The notes under the pieces were generated by a model that searched no databases, was not told the DNA's origin, and saw only the letters and a list, made by a program, of their open reading frames with translations. Made by a program: the position numbers and the translations under genes. Of a DNA stretch of 8,833 bases, positions 1,281-8,833 are shown piece by piece (position 1 is the stretch's first letter; every line of letters begins with the position of its first letter). This DNA is from Clostridia bacterium (GTDB lineage: Bacteria; Bacillota_A; Clostridia; Oscillospirales; SIG627): contig JAFVYT010000187.1 in assembly GCA_017508505.1 (NCBI GenBank), positions 1 to 8,833 on the forward strand. Reading direction: 5' to 3'.

Positions 1281-4200
1281 ATGGTTTATAGAGTATATGT
1301 AGAAAAGAAAAAGGAATTGGCAGGGGAGGCGAGAGCCCTTCTTGCAGATGTCAGACAGCTTTTGGGCATTACTTCTCTGGAGGACGTCCGTATTTTGAAC
1401 CGCTATGATGCGGAGAGTATTACGGAAGAGCTTTTCGAGTATGCGAAAAAGACGGTTTTTTCCGAGCCTCAGCTGGATCATTTCTCTTCCGAGCTTTCCG
1501 TCCCCGGTGCCACCGTTTTCGGTGTTGAGTATCTGCCCGGACAGTTTGATCAGAGAGCCGATTCGGCGGCACAGTGCATTCAGATCATCTCCCGCGGAGA
1601 TCGTCCCGTGGTGCGCACCGCAAAGATCTATGCTCTTTACGGCGATCTTTCCGAAGCGGAGATTGCCGAAATTAAAAAATACGTCATCAATCCGGTGGAG
1701 GCCAGAGAGGCGAGCCTTGAACTCCCGGAAACTCTCAAGATTGCTTATGAGATTCCCACCGAGGTGAAGACGCTGGAGGGCTTTATTGACCTTGACCGTG
1801 CGGGGCTTGAGGACTTTGTAAAGGAATACGGTCTTGCAATGGATGCGGATGATATTGCATTTTGTCAAGAATATTTCCGTAGCGAGCGCCGCGATCCTAC
1901 TATCACCGAGATTCGTATGATTGATACCTACTGGTCTGACCATTGTCGCCATACGACCTTCCAGACGGTTATCGACGACGTGAAATTTGAGGATGCGCTT
2001 CTTCAAAAGACCTACGAGGATTATCTTTCCATTCGTCGTGAGCTTGGCAGAACCAAGCCCATTTGTCTGATGGATCTCGCCACCCTTGCAGTGAAATACC
2101 TCCGTAAAAACGGAAAGCTGGATAAGCTGGATGAATCGGAGGAAATTAATGCCTGTACCGTCAAAATCGAGATTGAGGCAGACGGCAAGAAGGAGCCTTG
2201 GCTTCTCCTCTTTAAAAACGAAACCCATAACCATCCTACGGAAATCGAGCCCTTTGGTGGTGCTGCTACCTGTATTGGCGGTGCAATCCGTGACCCGCTT
2301 TCCGGAAGGGCGTACGTTTACGGAGCGATGCGTGTGACGGGCGCTGCGGATCCACTGGTTCCCGTAAACGACACGATCAAGGGAAAGCTTCCCCAAAGAA
2401 AGATCGTGACCACTGCCGCCGCAGGTTATTCCTCCTACGGAAACCAGATCGGTCTTGCTACAGGCATCGTAGATGAGATCTACCATCCCGGATATGCTGC
2501 TAAGCGTATGGAAATCGGTGCAGTTGTTGCTGCGGCCCCCGCAGAGAATGTGCGCCGCGAAAAGCCCCTGCCCGGTGACGTGATCATTCTGCTTGGCGGT
2601 AGCACGGGGCGCGACGGTATCGGCGGTGCAACCGGCTCCTCCAAGGCCCATGACTCTCACTCCGTTGAGACCTGCGGCGCAGAGGTTCAAAAGGGAAATG
2701 CTCCCGAGGAAAGAAAGCTCCAGCGCTTGTTCCGCAATCCCGTTGCCACCAAGATGATCAAGCGTTGCAACGATTTCGGTGCAGGCGGTGTTTCCGTTGC
2801 GATCGGTGAGCTTGCCGATGGTCTTGAGATCGATCTGAACGCAGTTCCCAAAAAGTACGAGGGCCTTGACGGTACCGAGCTTGCGATCAGTGAGTCTCAG
2901 GAAAGAATGGCTGTTTGTATTGAGAAAGAAAATGTGGAGGCCTTCCTTGCACTTGCAAAGGAAGAGAATCTTCAGGCTTGTCCCGTTGCCGTTGTAACGG
3001 AAAATCCTCGTCTTGTAATGAATTGGAATGGAAAGACAATCGTGAATATCAGTCGCGAGTTTCTGAATTCCAACGGTGCTGATAAGCATATCGTCATCAC
3101 CCCGGCGGCCTGCTGCTATGAGAATAAGAAGGTAGCAGGAAGCTTTTCCGACAACCTTTTGTCCCTTGCCCGGGATTTGAACGTGTGCTCGAAGCGCGGT
3201 CTCTCCGAGCGTTTTGATTCGACCATCGGTGCAGGAACCGTCCTGATGCCATTTGGCGGTAAAAGACAGAGAACGCCGATTCAGGCAATGGTTCAGAAAA
3301 TCTCCGTTGAGAAGAAGGATACCGACGATTGCTCCTTTATGGCTTGGGGCTACAATCCTTTCGTGATGGAAAAGAGCCCCTATCACGGTGCATATCTCGC
3401 CGTTGTGGAATCGGTTTCCAAGCTGATTGCCTCCGGAGCGTCCTTTGAGGATGTGTATTTGACGTTCCAGGAGAATTTTGAGCATCCCAGAAAGGACGGA
3501 AGGCGCTGGGGCAAGCCCCTTTCCGCGCTCCTTGGAGCTTTCCGTGCACAGCTTGACCTTGGTATCGGCTCCATTGGTGGAAAGGACTCGATGAGCGGCT
3601 CCTTTGAGGATCTTGACGTTCCCCCCACTCTCGTTTCCTTCGCGGTAACGACCGGTAAAACATACGAGGTGGTTTCTCCCGAAATGAAGAATGCGGGAAA
3701 CAAGCTCTATTTGCTTCTTCCCGAATATGACGAGAATCACCTTCCCAAGGCGGATTCCTTGATTGCTCTCTTCCATCGGGTGAACGATCTCCTTCGTGAG
3801 AAGAAGGCCGTTTCCGCTTATACGCCCGGACTTGGCGGAATCGCGGAGGCTGTCCTTAAAATGAGCCTTGGAAACGGCTATGGCTTTGCCTTCTCCGATG
3901 CATTGCGTCTCGATGCGCTCTTCGGATATTCTTACGGCGGGTTCCTTCTTGAGTGCCCGGAGGCGCTTGAGGATGCCGTTTTGGTTGGTACTGTTACCGA
4001 AGAACGGACTTTCGTCTATGGCTCCGAGCGTGTTAGCGCTGATGCTGCCGAGGCGCTCTACGAGGAGAAGCTGGAGAGTGTTTACTCCTGTAATATTCCG
4101 GCTCGCGAAACGCCTGTGGAAACCTTCAGCTTTATGGCAAAGGAGCGCAAGGCTCCCGTTTACAAGTGCCAAAAGCCTAAGGTTATAATTCCTGCTTTCC

Positions 4201-4970
4201 CCGGAACCAACTGCGAGTATGATTCTGCCAAGGCAGTTCGTGCTGCAGGTGCCGAGGCCGAGATTATGGTGATCAATAACCTCTCCGCCGAAGGCATCAG
4301 CCGCAGTGTTGAGACTTTTGCTGAAAAGCTCAAGGATTCGCAGATTGTCTTTATTCCCGGTGGCTTCTCCGGTGGTGATGAGCCCGATGGAAGCGGAAAG
4401 TTTATTACTGCCTTCTTCCGCAATGCCGCCATCAAGGAGGGCGTGACTGAGCTTTTGGATAAGCGCGACGGCCTGATGTGCGGTATCTGTAACGGCTTCC
4501 AGGCTTTGATCAAGCTTGGTCTCGTGCCTTACGGCAAGATCATCGATACCGATGAGAGCTGTCCTACCCTGACCTTCAACACCATTGCGCGCCACCAGTC
4601 CAAGATCGTTCGCACCAGAGTCTCCTCCAATCTGTCTCCCTGGCTTGCCTTGACCGAGGTTGGAAGTGTATATCACGTTCCGATCTCCCACGGCGAGGGT
4701 CGATTCCTTGCCGATGAGGCGTTGATTCGAAAATTGGCAGAGAACGGTCAGATTGCAACGCAGTACGTGGATTTTGACGGAAATGCAACGTCCGACGTTC
4801 AGTTTAACCCCAACGATTCTATGTTTGCCATTGAAGGCATTACCTCTCCTGACGGACGTGTCTTTGGTAAAATGGGCCATAGCGAACGTGTTGGTAAGGG
4901 CCTGTACGTGAACGTTCCCGGTAACTACGACATTCGTATGTTTGAGGCTGCGGTTCATTACTATAAGTAA
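1281..4970 (+). CDS. purL: Phosphoribosylformylglycinamidine synthase, single chain with glutaminase domain
   Basis: This enzyme converts FGAR to FGAM using ATP and ammonia from glutamine, the fourth step of purine synthesis. The 1229-residue chain carries in one protein what many Firmicutes split into PurS, PurL and PurQ. In order: a PurS-like N-terminal region (about 1-90), a linker with WSDHCRHTTF (218-227), a first synthetase half with KNETHNHPTE (312-321) and GGSTGRDGIGG (439-449), a second half with GIGSIGGKDSM (761-771), and a class I glutaminase from about 966. The glutaminase triad is present: C1070 in GICNGFQ, and H1137 and E1139 in SHGEGRF. The length fits the shorter single-chain clade of clostridia and streptococci rather than the roughly 1300-residue proteobacterial form. 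GAGGT (1271-1275) sits 5 bases before the ATG. In-frame TTA, CTA and TCA codons are absent over codons 1-1226, which creates a huge antisense open frame. Confidence 0.97.
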   Translation: MVYRVYVEKKKELAGEARALLADVRQLLGITSLEDVRILNRYDAESITEELFEYAKKTVFSEPQLDHFSSELSVPGATVFGVEYLPGQFDQRADSAAQCIQIISRGDRPVVRTAKIYALYGDLSEAEIAEIKKYVINPVEAREASLELPETLKIAYEIPTEVKTLEGFIDLDRAGLEDFVKEYGLAMDADDIAFCQEYFRSERRDPTITEIRMIDTYWSDHCRHTTFQTVIDDVKFEDALLQKTYEDYLSIRRELGRTKPICLMDLATLAVKYLRKNGKLDKLDESEEINACTVKIEIEADGKKEPWLLLFKNETHNHPTEIEPFGGAATCIGGAIRDPLSGRAYVYGAMRVTGAADPLVPVNDTIKGKLPQRKIVTTAAAGYSSYGNQIGLATGIVDEIYHPGYAAKRMEIGAVVAAAPAENVRREKPLPGDVIILLGGSTGRDGIGGATGSSKAHDSHSVETCGAEVQKGNAPEERKLQRLFRNPVATKMIKRCNDFGAGGVSVAIGELADGLEIDLNAVPKKYEGLDGTELAISESQERMAVCIEKENVEAFLALAKEENLQACPVAVVTENPRLVMNWNGKTIVNISREFLNSNGADKHIVITPAACCYENKKVAGSFSDNLLSLARDLNVCSKRGLSERFDSTIGAGTVLMPFGGKRQRTPIQAMVQKISVEKKDTDDCSFMAWGYNPFVMEKSPYHGAYLAVVESVSKLIASGASFEDVYLTFQENFEHPRKDGRRWGKPLSALLGAFRAQLDLGIGSIGGKDSMSGSFEDLDVPPTLVSFAVTTGKTYEVVSPEMKNAGNKLYLLLPEYDENHLPKADSLIALFHRVNDLLREKKAVSAYTPGLGGIAEAVLKMSLGNGYGFAFSDALRLDALFGYSYGGFLLECPEALEDAVLVGTVTEERTFVYGSERVSADAAEALYEEKLESVYSCNIPARETPVETFSFMAKERKAPVYKCQKPKVIIPAFPGTNCEYDSAKAVRAAGAEAEIMVINNLSAEGISRSVETFAEKLKDSQIVFIPGGFSGGDEPDGSGKFITAFFRNAAIKEGVTELLDKRDGLMCGICNGFQALIKLGLVPYGKIIDTDESCPTLTFNTIARHQSKIVRTRVSSNLSPWLALTEVGSVYHVPISHGEGRFLADEALIRKLAENGQIATQYVDFDGNATSDVQFNPNDSMFAIEGITSPDGRVFGKMGHSERVGKGLYVNVPGNYDIRMFEAAVHYYK

Positions 4971-4984
4971 TCTGAGGTGATAGT

Positions 4985-6661
4985 ATGGGATACAAAAGTG
5001 ATATTGAGATTGCTCAGGAATGCGTTATGCGTCCCATCGGCAAAATCGCCGCAAGGGCACACGTCGATGAAAAATACTTGGAGCAGTACGGTAAGTATAA
5101 GGCAAAGATTGATCCCGCTCTCCTTCGCGAAAGCGATCGCAGAGATGGAAAGCTTATCCTTGTAACCGCGATTACACCCACTCCCGCAGGAGAAGGGAAG
5201 ACCACCACGACCATAGGTCTTGCAGACGGTCTTTCCCGCATTGGCAAGGACGTTACCGTTGCCTTGCGTGAGCCCTCTCTAGGCCCTGTTTTCGGCGTGA
5301 AGGGCGGAGCTGCCGGCGGCGGTTATGCTCAGGTTGTTCCGATGGAGGACATCAACCTTCACTTTACCGGTGACTTTCACGCCATCGGTGCGGCCAACAA
5401 TCTTCTTGCCGCAATGCTGGATAATCACATTCAGCAGGGAAATGCTCTCGGTATTGACGTCAGAAAGATTACTTGGAAGCGCTGTGTGGATATGAACGAC
5501 CGTCAGCTTCGTTTCCTGACCGATGGTCTCGGTGGCAAGGCAAACGGCGTTCCCCGCGAGGACGGCTTTGAGATCACCGTTGCCAGCGAAATTATGGCGA
5601 TCTTCTGCCTCTCCGATTCCATTTCGGATTTAAAAGAGCGCCTCTCCAGGATCATCGTAGGCTACACCTATGACGATCGGCCCGTTACCGCAGGAGATCT
5701 CAAGGCCGTCGGTGCGATGGCAGCGCTCTTGAAGGATGCCATAAAGCCGAACCTTGTTCAAACTCTCGAGGGAACCCCCGCTTTCGTCCACGGCGGCCCC
5801 TTTGCGAATATTGCTCACGGATGCAACTCCGTTATGGCAACGAAGCTTGCCTTGAAGATGGGTGATTATACTGTGACGGAGGCCGGCTTCGGTGCCGATC
5901 TCGGAGCCGAGAAGTTTTTGGATATCAAGTGCCGAATGGCAGGTCTGGTTCCTTCCGCGGTTGTTGTTGTGGCTACGGTCAGAGCATTGAAGATGCACGG
6001 CGGCAGAGCCAAGACCGAGCTGGCAGAGGAGGACCTTGTTGCTCTTGAAAAGGGAATTCCCAATCTGCTTCGCCACGTTTCCAATATCAAAAACGTATAT
6101 CAGCTTCCTTGCGTTGTTGCAGTCAATCGTTTTCCCACGGATACCGATGCTGAGATTGACTTCATCATTGCCAAGTGTAGAGAGCTTGGTGTCAATACCG
6201 TCCTTTCTACCGTTTGGGCTGATGGCGGCAAGGGCGGTGAAGCACTCGCTCGCGAGGTCGTAAGGCTTTGCGAGGAGGAAGAGGGGAATTTCACCTTCTC
6301 CTACGATCTTGATCTTAAAATTGAGGAGAAAATCGAAGCCGTTGTGAAAAAGGTTTACGGTGGCGACGGCGTGATCGTCACGCCTGCCGCAGCCAAGCAA
6401 ATTGCTCAGCTTTCTTCTCTTGGCTTTGACCGACTTCCCATTTGTGTTGCCAAGACCCAATACAGCTTTTCCGACGATCCTACAAAGCTCGGTGCTCCCG
6501 AAGGCTTCAAGGTCACCGTAAAGAACGTGAAGGTCTCCGCCGGTGCCGGGTTTATCGTGGTTTTGACCGGTGACATTTTAACGATGCCCGGCCTCCCCAA
6601 GGTGCCTGCCGCTGAGAAGATCGACGTTGATGAAAACGGGAAGATCATCGGTCTCTTTTAA
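4985..6661 (+). CDS. fhs: Formate-tetrahydrofolate ligase
   Basis: This enzyme makes 10-formyl-tetrahydrofolate from formate, tetrahydrofolate and ATP. It feeds one-carbon units to purine synthesis (the PurN and PurH formyl transfers) and, in acetogens, to the Wood-Ljungdahl methyl branch. The 558 residues match the well-studied homotetrameric Moorella enzyme. Visible motifs are the P-loop [11 protein letters not shown] (64-74), [18 protein letters not shown] (96-113), HFTGDFHAI (126-134), [12 protein letters not shown] in the middle, [11 protein letters not shown], and TMPGLPK (533-539) near the C-terminus. GAGGTGA (4974-4980) lies 4 bases before the ATG, and only 14 bases separate the gene from purL. 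A strong terminator follows the stop codon directly, so fhs looks like the last gene of the purine operon. Its placement suggests co-supply of formyl donor with purine synthesis. Nothing in this window shows the rest of a Wood-Ljungdahl pathway. Confidence 0.97.
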
Positions 6662-6663
6662 GC

Positions 6664-6704
6664 AAAAAAAGAATGCAAGTCCGGGCTTGCATTCTTTTAT
6701 TTTC
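6664..6704 (+). terminator. Intrinsic terminator of the purD-purL-fhs operon
   Basis: A perfect 9-bp stem (GAATGCAAG at 6671-6679 with CTTGCATTC at 6686-6694) has a 6-base loop, begins three bases after the fhs stop codon region, and runs into a T-rich tract. The preceding A-tract (6664-6670) can pair with the T run and lengthen the stem to about 13 bp. The A-tract also means the hairpin could work weakly in the reverse direction. Confidence 0.93.
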
Positions 6705-6776
6705 TGAAAACACATATTTGGAACGAGTCCTCACGTCGTACTACCCGGGCGATGAATCAAAACGTGCGGAATTCCA
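6705..6776. other. Intergenic stretch with no recognised content
   Basis: These bases lie between the purine-operon terminator and the next promoter region. I see no ribosome site, convincing coding frame, promoter or RNA gene. An open frame that starts inside the terminator and runs through the T-box leader (6673-6993) is not credible as a gene. Confidence 0.6.
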
Positions 6777-6795
6777 AGATTTTTTTGAAAAATCT
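6777..6795. promoter_or_regulatory. Perfect inverted repeat next to the -35 box; candidate operator or UP-like element
   Basis: AGATTTTT (6777-6784) and AAAAATCT (6788-6795) form perfect 8-base arms around a 3-base centre. The right arm ends one base before the -35 hexamer. The dyad shape and position suit binding by a dimeric repressor or activator, and the gene downstream encodes an XRE-type DNA-binding domain, so autoregulation is conceivable. The A/T tracts could instead act as an UP element. The repeat itself is plain in the sequence; its function is inference. Confidence 0.45.
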
Positions 6796-6796
6796 C

Positions 6797-6824
6797 TTGA
6801 CAAATCAAAACACGGTGCTATAAT
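6797..6824 (+). promoter_or_regulatory. Consensus sigma-A type promoter with extended -10
   Basis: TTGACA (6797-6802) and TATAAT (6819-6824) are exact consensus hexamers with a 16-base spacer. TG at 6816-6817 supplies an extended -10 (TGnTATAAT). Transcription should start near 6831, exactly where the T-box leader begins. So strong a promoter fits a gene whose output is limited later, by termination in the leader. Confidence 0.92.
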
Positions 6825-6921
6825 ACCTAACATAAAGGCTGTGATGAAGACGGCTTTAAGTTATTTCTTTTCAGAGAGTCGACGGTTGGTGCGAGTAGAT
6901 AGGGGAAACTTAAAACAGCCC

Positions 6922-6924
6922 ATC
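6922..6924 (+). promoter_or_regulatory. Probable specifier codon ATC (Ile) of the T-box
   Basis: In characterised leaders the specifier lies one base before the short helix that precedes the conserved GAGC. Here that helix strand is CTTC (6926-6929), paired with GAAG (6846-6849), so the codon falls on ATC. The T-box variable base is T (7038), which pairs with discriminator A73, as in tRNA-Ile. Shifting one base gives TCC (Ser), but bacterial tRNA-Ser usually has G73 and would call for C at 7038. A weakness is that the following base is C rather than the usual purine, and the loop's 3' side is longer than normal if GGC/GCC (6852-6854/6918-6920) stays unpaired. Confidence 0.55.
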
Positions 6925-7028
6925 CCTTCTGAGCCGGAGGTCCGAAAGCTTTTGCAAGTAGATATCTCCCGTGATTGCTGCGTTAATGCATAAGGATTGA
7001 TGGATCCTGAGTGGCAGTTTAACTGCAA

Positions 7029-7069
7029 TTTGAGTGGTACCGCGAGTAATGTATATTACCCGTCTCAAA
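7029..7069 (+). promoter_or_regulatory. T-box antiterminator
   Basis: Helix A1 pairs TTTGAG (7029-7034) with CTCAAA (7064-7069). The TGGT bulge (7035-7038) is the part that pairs with the NCCA end of uncharged tRNA. An upper helix of GTAAT (7046-7050) and ATTAC (7055-7059) closes a 4-base loop. Its 3' arm is the same CTCAAA that builds the terminator stem, so the two folds exclude each other. Confidence 0.88.
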
Positions 7070-7100
7070 GTATTTTGAGACGGGTTTATTTTTTATTTTT
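7058..7100 (+). terminator. T-box regulated intrinsic terminator
   Basis: A perfect 12-bp stem pairs 7058-7069 (ACCCGTCTCAAA) with 7074-7085 (TTTGAGACGGGT) around a 4-base loop. A T-rich run continues to 7100. It forms when charged tRNA leaves the antiterminator unstabilised, stopping transcription about 20 bases before the start codon of the next gene. Confidence 0.93.
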
Positions 7101-7105
7101 CAAAA

Positions 7106-7111
7106 AGGAGG
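7106..7111 (+). promoter_or_regulatory. Strong ribosome binding site that fixes the start at 7120
   Basis: AGGAGG is an exact Shine-Dalgarno core 8 bases before the ATG at 7120. It lies just after the leader terminator, which supports this start rather than the later in-frame ATG codons in the helix-turn-helix. Confidence 0.9.
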
Positions 7112-7119
7112 AAACGATA

Positions 7120-8833
7120 ATGGCAACTTTTTCTGAAAACAAATTAAACGAGGTTGCACTTCGAATTCGTGAAATGCGAGAGATCTCAGGGCTTTCACTT
7201 GAAGAGATGGCTCTCAGAACCGAAGTGACGCTTCAAGAGTATAAAGCCTATGAGAACGGTGAATTGGACTTCCCCTTTTCGTTCTTGCACAAGTGTTCTT
7301 TGGAGTTTGGAATCGGCATTACCGATTTGCTGGAAGGCAAAAGTGCCCTTCTTTCCTCTTACACCGTTACCCGAAAGGGGCAGGGGCAGGAGACTGCGAA
7401 GGAGGACGGCATCACCATTCAGAACCTTGCACCCAAGTTCCGCAACAAAATTGCCGAGCCCTACTGGGTGCGGTATGAATATGACCCCTCCCAGCAGAAT
7501 AAGCCCATCCACCTTGCCAAGCACAGCGGCCAGGAGTTTGACCTTGTGGTATCAGGAAAGCTCAAGGTTCAGATCGGCGATCACATTGAGATCCTCGAGG
7601 AAGGGGACAGCATCTATTATAACAGCTCCACCCCTCACGGCATGATTGCGGTAGACGGTAAGGACTGTCTGTTCTGCGCCGTTGTTCTCCCCGGTGAGAA
7701 TGAGAAGGAGGACGTGGTTCTGAAGAACCTTGTAAAGGCGAAGCGCTCTGAGGCTCTTATCTGCGAAAAGTTTGTGGAAACCACCGAGGATGAAAACGGC
7801 TGTCTGAAGGATATTTCCTTTAAGAACACCGATCGCTTTAACTTCGGCTTTGATATCGTGGATGAGATCGCGGAGAAGTATCCCGACAAACTTGCGATGC
7901 TTCACCTCGATAAGTACAAGAACGAAAGAAGATTCTCCTTCCTGGATATGAAGCAGCACTCCAATCAGTGTGCAAACTACTTTACCTCGCTTGGTATCAA
8001 GAGAGGGGACAAGGTCATGCTGGTGTTAAAACGCCACTATCAGTTCTGGTTTGCGATGGTTGCGCTTCATAAGATTGGCGCTGTTGCCATCCCCGCCACG
8101 AATCAATTGAAGGAACACGACTTTTTGTACCGTTACAACGCAGCGGGAGTTTCTGCCATCGTTTGTACCTCTGACGGAGACGTTGCCGACATTGCTGCGT
8201 CTGCCGCCGAACAATGTCCCTGTGTTAAGACCAAGATCATCGTCGGCGAGTCTAAGGAGGGGTGGCATAACTTCAACGAGGAATACAAGCTCTTCTCCAG
8301 AAAATTCGTTCGTCCCGAGGATGCTTCCGCAGGAGATGAAACTGCGTTGATGTTCTTCACCTCCGGTACCACCGGAAATCCCAAGATGGCCGCTCACAAG
8401 CACACTTATGCACTGGGCCATTTCGTAACGGCAAAGTATTGGCATTGCTGTGAGAGAGAAGGTCTGCATCTGACCATCTCCGACACGGGCTGGGGCAAGT
8501 CTCTCTGGGGCAAGCTCTACGGTCAGTGGCTTTGCGAGGGCGCTGTTTTCGTTTATGACTTTGATCGTTTTGATGAAAACGATATTCTTCCGATGTTTGC
8601 AAAGTATAACATCACGACCTTCTGCGCACCTCCCACGATGCTTCGTATGCTGATCCGGGGAGACCTTTCCAAGTATGATCTCAGCTCCATCCATCATATG
8701 ACTACGGCCGGCGAGGCACTCAATCCTGAAGTTCATAAGCTTTTTAAAGAGGCCACGGGTCTTGAGATTATGGAGGGCTTCGGTCAGACCGAGACTACTC
8801 TTGCAATTGCGAACTTTGCGGGGACTCATCCGA
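7120..8833 (+). CDS. XRE-cupin-acyl-CoA synthetase fusion (ACSM-like, AMP-forming), 3' end cut by the window
   Basis: The frame is open for 571 codons to the window edge without a stop. Residues about 9-72 form an XRE-type helix-turn-helix (IREMREISGLSLEEMA then YKAYENG). Residues about 128-190 form a cupin: KHSGQEFDLVVSG (134-146) resembles motif 1, and GDSIYY then TPHG (162-174) motif 2. From about 240 an adenylate-forming ligase begins, with the core ATP-binding TSGTTGNPK (414-422), then SDTGWGKSLWG, and GFGQTE (553-558). The SDTGW-type segment and the stretch up to GFGQTE closely resemble medium-chain acyl-CoA synthetases (ACSM family), which turn a carboxylate, ATP and CoA into acyl-CoA, AMP and pyrophosphate. 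About 230 C-terminal residues, including the catalytic lysine region, should lie beyond the window. The substrate is not readable. Ile T-box control suggests a branched short-chain acid; an aryl acid is the alternative. HTH-cupin and ligase are often separate genes, but here no stop or restart divides them. Confidence 0.9.
   Translation, partial: MATFSENKLNEVALRIREMREISGLSLEEMALRTEVTLQEYKAYENGELDFPFSFLHKCSLEFGIGITDLLEGKSALLSSYTVTRKGQGQETAKEDGITIQNLAPKFRNKIAEPYWVRYEYDPSQQNKPIHLAKHSGQEFDLVVSGKLKVQIGDHIEILEEGDSIYYNSSTPHGMIAVDGKDCLFCAVVLPGENEKEDVVLKNLVKAKRSEALICEKFVETTEDENGCLKDISFKNTDRFNFGFDIVDEIAEKYPDKLAMLHLDKYKNERRFSFLDMKQHSNQCANYFTSLGIKRGDKVMLVLKRHYQFWFAMVALHKIGAVAIPATNQLKEHDFLYRYNAAGVSAIVCTSDGDVADIAASAAEQCPCVKTKIIVGESKEGWHNFNEEYKLFSRKFVRPEDASAGDETALMFFTSGTTGNPKMAAHKHTYALGHFVTAKYWHCCEREGLHLTISDTGWGKSLWGKLYGQWLCEGAVFVYDFDRFDENDILPMFAKYNITTFCAPPTMLRMLIRGDLSKYDLSSIHHMTTAGEALNPEVHKLFKEATGLEIMEGFGQTETTLAIANFAGTHP

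What the first reader, a model, noticed from the sequence alone, without database searches (positions are those of the whole stretch)
6831..8833. T-box riboswitch controls an acyl-CoA synthetase rather than a classical amino-acid gene
The leader is unmistakable (GAGTGGTACCGCG at 7032-7044, shared antiterminator/terminator arm, stem I loops). The only gene it can control here is an ACSM-type ligase with regulatory domains. Most T-box targets are aminoacyl-tRNA synthetases, biosynthesis enzymes or transporters. An acyl-CoA ligase under tRNA control implies that the CoA ester is an amino-acid precursor.
Basis: partly seen in the sequence, partly recalled or inferred. Interest (0 to 1): 0.72.

Follow-up and report, generated by a model that had tools for sequence, protein, structure and literature searches.

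The report
tRNA-sensing switch on isoleucine salvage gene
A gut or rumen Clostridia-type bacterium appears to switch on an enzyme that activates the branched acid 2-methylbutyrate when isoleucine-loaded tRNA runs low, and its relatives carry a matching valine version, so the RNA switch itself suggests what each enzyme is for.

Summary
Window 6832-7070 matches the Rfam T-box model (87.3 bits, E 1e-19, but below the gathering score of 93), with a 12/12 promoter before it, a terminator sharing an arm with the antiterminator, and then an HTH-cupin-acyl-CoA synthetase (ACS1, cut by the window end).

The specifier reads AUC (Ile, 6922-6924). Among 81 ACS1 loci it is AUC in 73 of 73 readable leaders. 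A neighbouring paralogue, ACS2, has its own T-box, reading Val (GUA/GUC) in 47 of 47 readable of 53. The same reading rule gave the cognate codon at 19 of 20 aminoacyl-tRNA synthetase leaders.

Of 54 loci with at least 5.9 kb downstream, 47 carry 2-ketoisovalerate:ferredoxin oxidoreductase on the same strand. Ligase plus oxidoreductase is the route from branched-chain fatty acids to Val and Ile. One pocket residue separates ACS1 (Gly, 79 of 80) from ACS2 (Ala, 50 of 50). Loci lacking ACS2 mostly lie in genomes that have ketol-acid reductoisomerase (9 of 14, against 3 of 36).

Best reading: tRNA-Ile-controlled activation of 2-methylbutyrate for isoleucine synthesis. T-box and pathway are each known; in the papers searched I found no report joining them. 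No experiment was possible.

The parts
6797..6824 (+). sigma-70-type promoter TTGACA-16-TATAAT
   Evidence: 12 of 12 consensus positions, TG before the second hexamer
6832..7070 (+). T-box leader RNA
   Evidence: RF00230, 87.3 bits, E 1e-19, full model 1-219; gathering score 93 not reached
6837..6935 (+). Stem I of the T-box; base helix 6837-6840 with 6932-6935
   Evidence: model alignment, letters checked; homologous leaders share the motif
6846..6849 (+). lower specifier helix, 5' arm GAAG, pairs with CTTC 6926-6929
   Evidence: letters; model pairs 15-18
6852..6855 (+). upper specifier helix, 5' arm GGCT, pairs with AGCC 6917-6920
   Evidence: third pair complementary in 52 of 56 distinct leaders against a shuffle mean of 26.0 and maximum of 35; fourth pair 39 of 56 against 22.4 and 33; fifth position not paired
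6873..6878 (+). AGAGAG motif of the distal part of Stem I, opposite GGTTGGTG at 6884-6891
   Evidence: sequence and model alignment; role recalled from T-box literature
6922..6924 (+). specifier codon AUC (Ile)
   Evidence: model alignment; AUC in 73 of 73 readable ACS1 leaders; reading rule right at 19 of 20 aminoacyl-tRNA synthetase leaders
7032..7044 (+). T-box sequence GAGTGGTACCGCG; TGGT 7035-7038 would pair with a tRNA 3' end ACCA
   Evidence: sequence; pairing inferred
7029..7070 (+). antiterminator, TTTGAG 7029-7034 with the CTCAAA arm near 7064-7069
   Evidence: local fold and model alignment
7058..7085 (+). intrinsic terminator hairpin followed by a T tract
   Evidence: -19.1 kcal/mol
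7105..7112 (+). ribosome-binding site AAGGAGGA
   Evidence: sequence
7120..8832 (+). ACS1: HTH (residues 15-74), Cupin_2 (119-187) and AMP-binding (248-564) acyl-CoA synthetase, 571 residues, open at the window end; full relatives about 755 residues
   Evidence: Pfam; relatives of 753-755 residues
8491..8508 (+). acyl-pocket stretch W-G-K-S-L-W; Gly at 8494-8496
   Evidence: W-G-K in 79 of 80 readable ACS1, W-A-K in 50 of 50 readable ACS2; pocket role recalled for MacsMa (3etc), aligned

Best explanation
6832-7070 is a transcriptional T-box riboswitch specific for tRNA-Ile. When uncharged tRNA-Ile accumulates, its anticodon pairs with AUC 6922-6924 and its ACCA end with TGGT 7035-7038, the antiterminator wins over the terminator 7058-7085, and ACS1 is transcribed. 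ACS1 activates 2-methylbutyrate to 2-methylbutyryl-CoA; a 2-oxoacid:ferredoxin oxidoreductase carboxylates it reductively to 3-methyl-2-oxovalerate, and a branched-chain transaminase makes isoleucine. In relatives the next gene, ACS2, is the same device for isobutyrate and valine under tRNA-Val. Shown: the RNA match, the codon, its conservation, the gene order in relatives, the pocket difference and the link with KARI. Inferred: tRNA binding, antitermination, the substrates, the direction of the oxidoreductase, and that the window's own organism has the downstream genes, which lie outside the window.
For: RNA. Codon: AUC in 73 of 73 readable ACS1 leaders; GUA 42 and GUC 5 in 47 of 47 readable ACS2 leaders; Leu codons in 8 of 8 readable leuA-like leaders (five of the eight by script and three by eye). 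Rule checked on 20 aminoacyl-tRNA synthetase leaders named by NCBIfam: 19 cognate. Operon: of 54 loci with at least 5.9 kb downstream, same-strand VorB 47, CbiA-like NTPase 49, ferredoxin 47, ACS2 40, IlvE 17; VorB and IlvE pass their NCBIfam cut-offs. Ligase: best solved match 3etc (623.7 bits for a full-length relative); best NCBIfam match MbcS, an enzyme that activates 2-methylbutyrate and isobutyrate (PMC10026030, passages). Pocket. Genomes: KARI in 3 of 36 with ACS2 in the locus, 9 of 14 without (Fisher p 1.2e-4); in independent pairs on a tree the two go the same way in 4.6 and opposite in 0.0 of 8. Physiology: 2-methylbutyrate is a precursor of Ile and isobutyrate of Val in the rumen (PMC7356843, passages).
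Against: The leader is under the Rfam gathering score and its fold energy is not striking. 7 of 81 ACS1 loci show no recognisable T-box, one of them cut by its contig end, and an eighth leader is truncated. The MbcS model cut-off is not met (196 against 850 for the window fragment; 424.2 for an ACS2). One ACS1 (L020) has the ACS2-type Ala. The tree-corrected test is marginal (median p 0.0625, range 0.0312-0.5). The link of ACS1-like genes alone with KARI absence is not significant (5 of 16 against 71 of 131, p 0.11). No tRNA-Ile was among the 30 of 43 tRNA matches examined in the one genome tried. Catabolic or lipid roles are not excluded by sequence.
Confidence: 0.82

Rival explanations
1. 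The ligase supplies branched acyl-CoA primers for branched-chain membrane fatty acids, as MbcS does in Staphylococcus aureus, and T-box control only uses amino-acid shortage as a signal of low keto-acid supply.
For: MbcS is the best NCBIfam match, and MbcS feeds fatty-acid synthesis (PMC10026030, passages). 2-Methylbutyryl- and isobutyryl-CoA could serve both ends.
Against: In relatives the ligases sit with the oxidoreductase (47 of 54 loci) and sometimes IlvE (17 of 54), the enzymes that carry the CoA ester on to an amino acid. KARI is mostly present where ACS2 is missing and mostly absent where it is present, as a valine role predicts. None of these proves that no acyl-CoA goes to lipid.
Confidence: 0.1
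2. The operon breaks down Ile and Val: the oxidoreductase decarboxylates the 2-oxoacids and the ligase works backwards to give free acid and ATP.
For: Enzymes of the VOR family also run in the oxidative direction in peptide-fermenting anaerobes (recalled).
Against: A T-box turns genes on when the charged tRNA is scarce, the wrong time to degrade the amino acid. The ligase belongs to the AMP-forming family, which normally spends ATP. The genomes mostly lack KARI (present in 12 of 50; RecA over cut-off in 46 of 50), so they would be destroying an amino acid that most cannot make by that route.
Confidence: 0.05
3. The specifier is read in the wrong register and the switch senses another tRNA (for example Ser, UCC/UCA).
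For: The base after AUC is A in 37, C in 32 and G in 3 of 72 leaders, so a UCN register is not broken by base changes; one control leader (pheS, L103) is off by one under the rule.
Against: The rule gives the cognate codon at 19 of 20 aminoacyl-tRNA synthetase leaders. One base later, ACS2 leaders would mostly read the stop codons UAG or UAA. Ile, Val and Leu fit the gene sets.
Confidence: 0.02
4. The leader is a relic and ACS1 is transcribed mainly from elsewhere.
For: A weak 9-of-12 promoter-like site lies at 7030-7057; some relatives have ACS1 directly after another gene without its own T-box (L066, L068, L071, L072).
Against: 12-of-12 promoter, intact terminator and antiterminator in the window; AUC kept in 73 of 73 readable leaders; covariation in the specifier helix.
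Confidence: 0.03

Closest known systems
T-box leader (Rfam RF00230), tRNA-Ile class, transcriptional
   Same: Stem I with distal AGAGA/GGTTGGTG motifs, specifier codon, GAGTGGTACCGCG, antiterminator and terminator
   Different: The specifier loop is a compact 2 x 5 loop (AC / CAUCC). GAA beside the codon was seen in 0 of 72 ACS1 and 1 of 42 ACS2 leaders, but in 20 of 22 control leaders, 19 of which also have AGTA on the 5' side. The gene controlled is an acyl-CoA synthetase.
MacsMa, Methanosarcina acetivorans medium-chain acyl-CoA synthetase (PDB 3etc)
   Same: Best solved match (623.7 and 608 bits for full ACS1 and ACS2 of L001). The six pocket residues Trp237, Trp254, Lys256, Trp259, Cys298, Gly351 are kept in the L001 pair; the residue list and the 2-methylbutyrate preference are recalled, as the paper is not held
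   Different: 3etc has no HTH-cupin part in the aligned chain; ACS2 has Ala where MacsMa and ACS1 have Gly; no T-box is expected in an archaeon
MbcS of Staphylococcus aureus (NF047394)
   Same: Best NCBIfam model for the ligase domain; activates 2-methylbutyrate and isobutyrate (PMC10026030, passages)
   Different: Score far below the model cut-off; MbcS feeds lipid synthesis; the passages seen name no T-box (0 occurrences)
[quoted passage not shown]
   Same: Ligase + 2-oxoacid:ferredoxin oxidoreductase + transaminase; precursors named in PMC7356843 (passages), and proposed for Methanobrevibacter ruminantium in PMC2812497 (passages)
   Different: Those passages give no T-box and no paired ligases; PMC7709123 (passages) calls the reverse reaction not proven yet in its introduction on Prevotella bryantii

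Membership tests
T-box riboswitch (RF00230) | covariance-model match over the full model | tested here: met
   87.3 bits, E 1e-19, model 1-219
T-box riboswitch (RF00230) | score at or above the curated gathering score | tested here: not met
   87.3 against 93; ACS1 leaders of L001, L007 and L029 score 103.3, 103.7 and 104.9, that of L034 83.3. This is a cut-off, not a structural feature, and I still file it as a T-box
T-box riboswitch (RF00230) | T-box sequence, antiterminator and terminator with a shared arm | tested here: met
T-box riboswitch (RF00230) | specifier codon that fits the controlled gene | tested here: met
   AUC; operon for branched-chain amino acids in relatives
T-box riboswitch (RF00230) | loop E-type specifier loop (AGTA / GAA; naming recalled) | tested here: not met
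   GAA beside the codon in 0 of 72 ACS1 leaders against 20 of 22 controls. Common but not obligatory in the family by this count (2 of 22 controls lack it too)
T-box riboswitch (RF00230) | binding of uncharged tRNA-Ile and antitermination | not testable with these tools
   needs experiment
MbcS (NF047394) | curated model score of 850 | tested here: not met
   196 for the fragment, 424.2 for a full ACS2; not filed as MbcS
2-methylbutyrate-type acyl-CoA synthetase (MacsMa-like) | pocket residues of 3etc | tested here: met
   alignments; W-G-K..W in 79 of 80 readable ACS1; the window has W-G-K-S-L-W. Trp237 is Phe in 11 of 81 ACS1 by pattern
2-methylbutyrate-type acyl-CoA synthetase (MacsMa-like) | activity on 2-methylbutyrate | not testable with these tools
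   needs enzyme assay
Branched-chain fatty-acid reductive-carboxylation operon | 2-oxoacid:ferredoxin oxidoreductase beside the ligase | tested here: met
   in relatives, 47 of 54 loci with at least 5.9 kb downstream; not visible in the window, which ends inside ACS1
Branched-chain fatty-acid reductive-carboxylation operon | classical pathway missing or by-passed | tested here: inconclusive
   KARI in 12 of 50, IlvD in 15 of 50 with RecA over cut-off in 46 of 50; draft genomes of uncultured bacteria, and the window's own genome is not held

The most novel reading that the evidence does not exclude
A regulon in which RNA and enzyme have specialised together: duplicated HTH-cupin-acyl-CoA synthetases, each behind its own T-box, in which specifier codon (AUC or GUA/GUC) and acyl-pocket residue (Gly or Ala) change in step, so that each tRNA calls for exactly the fatty acid that becomes its amino acid. 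These T-boxes use a compact specifier loop without the GAA motif that is usual in the same genomes, and the HTH-cupin part may add a second, protein-level sensor of the acid or its CoA ester.
Probability: 0.5. Interest if true: 0.78.

Novelty: new variant of a known kind. Interest (0 to 1): 0.68.

Why it matters
That rumen bacteria turn branched-chain volatile fatty acids into amino acids is old knowledge (works of 1966-1971 cited in PMC7356843, passages), and such acids are fed to ruminants as isoacids. This gives the trait a gene marker and a control device. It makes three things testable at once: which organisms depend on which acid (ACS1 for 2-methylbutyrate, ACS2 for isobutyrate), whether the T-box codon can be used to assign a substrate to a metabolic enzyme and not only to transporters and synthetases (the use described in PMC2494555, passages), and how a T-box works with a shortened specifier loop. 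It also shows that a default Rfam cut-off misses such leaders.

Tried and rejected
Rejected: lipid-primer role, catabolic direction, other codon register and relic leader (see rivals). Other sub-threshold Rfam matches in 6660-7140 (caiA 30.5 bits against 55.5, snoR12, RsaF and others) overlap the terminator or low-complexity sequence and were set aside. Minimum-energy folding of the whole leader does not recover Stem I as the model has it and was not used. My first automatic codon reader misread 4 of 81 ACS1, 3 of 53 ACS2 and some leuA-like leaders, where it picked a chance match; they were re-read by eye, and ACS1 and ACS2 were re-counted with stricter patterns. I first took L105 for hisS by eye; NCBIfam calls it hisZ, so it is not counted among the synthetases. 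A first loop-E test looked for GAA only directly beside the codon; it was redone allowing one base between.

Controls not counted as cognate: pheS of L103 (off by one), a TrpX-like binding protein below its cut-off (L091) and L110 (no gene found). Beyond the 20 synthetase leaders, cysE (TGC), trpE (TGG; score just under cut-off, fragment) and hisZ (CAC) also read cognate.

Order-level contingency: of 147 genomes, KARI in 9 of 48 with an uninterrupted match of 1000 bits or more, and in 67 of 99 others (p 2.2e-8, not corrected for kinship). The 48 were picked by me from the listing; G130 (1007.6 bits, one in-frame stop) was left out, and G171 is partial. The group mixes ACS1, ACS2 and perhaps other paralogues.

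Literature: 10 searches gave no paper that joins T-box and acyl-CoA synthetase for this route. Two T-box surveys that might hold such a case could not be read, nor the MacsMa paper, so prior mention is not excluded. 'acyl', 'CoA' and 'ferredoxin' do not occur in the main texts of PMC2494555 and PMC7778990 (term counts; supplements not seen).

Not done: structure prediction, fold search, custom covariance model, viral or metagenome scans.
Full report
WHAT IS THERE. The window holds purD (5-1270), a single-chain PurL (1281-4970) and formate-tetrahydrofolate ligase (4985-6661), all on the + strand, a terminator-like hairpin at 6667-6698, and then a separate unit: promoter 6797-6824 (12 of 12 positions), T-box leader 6832-7070 (87.3 bits, E 1e-19, full-length match), terminator 7058-7085, a Shine-Dalgarno sequence and an open frame from 7120 with HTH, cupin and AMP-binding domains. 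The leader is under the Rfam gathering score of 93, so the default scan missed it.

THE CODON. In the model alignment the specifier falls on AUC 6922-6924. I tested the register. A rule (codon, one base, four bases of helix, one base, then GAG or a close variant) was applied to T-box leaders found by Rfam in 17 genomes that carry related loci; 30 of those matches were fetched. Their genes were named with NCBIfam. At 20 aminoacyl-tRNA synthetase genes the rule gives the cognate codon in 19: pheS 6 of 7, valS 4 of 4, asnS 4 of 4, tyrS 3 of 3, metG 2 of 2; the miss (L103, pheS) has UUC one base away. cysE, trpE and hisZ also read cognate.

CONSERVATION. A scan of genome contigs gave 80 loci with ACS1 at 66-84% identity in the best segment, mostly from sheep, goat, cattle, deer, rabbit and horse gut or rumen draft genomes; these are the best 80 of at least 587. 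With the window that is 81. Of these, 73 leaders are readable and 73 read AUC; one (L012) is cut by its contig end; seven have no recognisable T-box (L017 degenerate, L044 contig end, L058, L066, L068, L071, L072). In relatives the next gene is a paralogue, ACS2, again HTH-cupin-AMP-binding, with its own T-box: 47 of 53 are readable, GUA in 42 and GUC in 5; L078 is scrambled and five have none. A leuA-like gene upstream in some loci reads CUC or CUG in 8 of 8 readable of 17. So three linked gene sets carry three branched-chain amino-acid codons. In two Erysipelotrichaceae loci (L073, L080) the ACS2 leader is of the ordinary AGTA/GAA kind but still reads GUC, as if the leader had been replaced and the specificity kept.

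THE OPERON. Of 54 loci with at least 5.9 kb after ACS1, the same strand carries ACS2 in 40, a CbiA-like NTPase in 49, a ferredoxin in 47, VorB in 47, VorA in 41, VorC in 36 and IlvE in 17 (the last subunits often run off the fetched stretch). Of the seven loci without oxidoreductase on that strand, three run out of sequence (L006, L059, L066), L021 has it on the other strand and three (L002, L008, L023) show none. VorB passes its NCBIfam cut-off (542.6 against 399) and IlvE too (478.6 against 307).

THE ENZYME. The best solved match is 3etc, MacsMa of Methanosarcina acetivorans, which I recall to prefer 2-methylbutyrate; the paper is not held. The best NCBIfam match is MbcS, below cut-off; MbcS activates 2-methylbutyrate and isobutyrate (PMC10026030, passages). 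The residue between pocket residues Trp254 and Lys256 (numbering recalled; chain offset 23) is Gly in 79 of 80 readable ACS1, as in 3etc, and Ala in 50 of 50 readable ACS2; the exception is L020. A smaller pocket would suit the smaller acid; this is inference.

THE GENOMES. Among 50 genomes with an ACS1 locus, ketol-acid reductoisomerase (KARI, IlvC) is found in 12, IlvD in 15 and RecA over cut-off in 46. KARI is present in 3 of 36 whose locus has ACS2 and in 9 of 14 whose locus lacks it (p 1.2e-4). The combination without ACS2 and with KARI needs at least 7 changes on the ACS1 tree; in phylogenetically independent pairs the two traits go the same way in 4.6 of 8 on average and never the opposite way, median p 0.0625. 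One genome without ACS2 in its locus (L057) has an ACS2-like gene with a GUC leader elsewhere (L097). This fits: a cell that makes valine from pyruvate does not need isobutyrate, yet may still take 2-methylbutyrate for isoleucine. In an order-level sample KARI is found in 9 of 48 genomes with long ACS matches and in 67 of 99 others, uncorrected for kinship; for ACS1-like genes alone the difference is not significant (5 of 16 against 71 of 131, p 0.11).

A SHORTENED SPECIFIER LOOP. In 72 ACS1 leaders the helix above the codon begins directly with GG/CC; among 56 distinct ones the third pair is complementary in 52 (U-A, A-U, C-G, U-G), against a shuffle mean of 26.0 and maximum of 35 (one leader, L011, was not matched by the script). 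That leaves two bases opposite five. GAA beside the codon is absent in 72 of 72 ACS1 and 41 of 42 ACS2 leaders examined, but present in 20 of 22 control leaders of known reading. This may be why these leaders score near or under the Rfam cut-off; that is inference.

MECHANISM AND DIRECTION. Low charged tRNA-Ile should let ACS1 and what follows be transcribed. The resulting 2-methylbutyryl-CoA is the substrate for reductive carboxylation to the 2-oxoacid of isoleucine. In the rumen 2-methylbutyrate is a known precursor of Ile and isobutyrate of Val (PMC7356843, passages); for a rumen methanogen the route is proposed from its genome (PMC2812497, passages). A catabolic reading fits badly with induction at shortage.

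WHAT IS NOT SHOWN. Substrates, tRNA response and transcript ends are untested. The window ends inside ACS1, so the downstream genes are inferred from relatives. The window's genome is not held. The role of the HTH-cupin part is unknown. Novelty rests on ten searches of one open-access library; two T-box surveys were not readable.

VERDICT. Observation confirmed; interpretation supported and made specific. T-box and pathway are both known kinds; their union, the paired ligases and the compact specifier loop make it a new variant.

Noticed in passing
L073 and L080, upstream of ACS2: ACS2 leaders here have the ordinary AGTA/GAA specifier loop, unlike most others, but still read GUC (Val): possible leader replacement with kept specificity.
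   Followed up: partly
L004:1757-4210 and 18 other loci: A protein of about 818 residues, xylose-isomerase-like TIM barrel fused to an AMP-binding domain, seen in 19 loci together with the leuA-like gene, which has a Leu-reading T-box in the 8 readable cases; its role is unknown.
   Followed up: partly
L001:10895-11554 and relatives: A CbiA/ParA-like NTPase of about 220 residues lies in this operon in 49 of 54 loci; function in the pathway unknown.
   Followed up: no
L097 (genome of L057, titled Sphaerochaetaceae): An HTH-cupin acyl-CoA synthetase behind a T-box reading GUC in a genome labelled as a spirochaete: transfer or mis-binning.
   Followed up: no
window 7120-7680: The ligase carries N-terminal HTH and cupin domains, so the enzyme may also be a DNA-binding sensor; not explained here.
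   Followed up: no
window 6667-6698: Symmetric terminator-like hairpin with T tracts on both strands between the folate gene and the T-box unit.
   Followed up: no
L017:8200-8800: A T-box-like sequence precedes the IlvE gene (pattern hit), and a degenerate T-box-like remnant lies upstream of ACS1 in the same locus.
   Followed up: no
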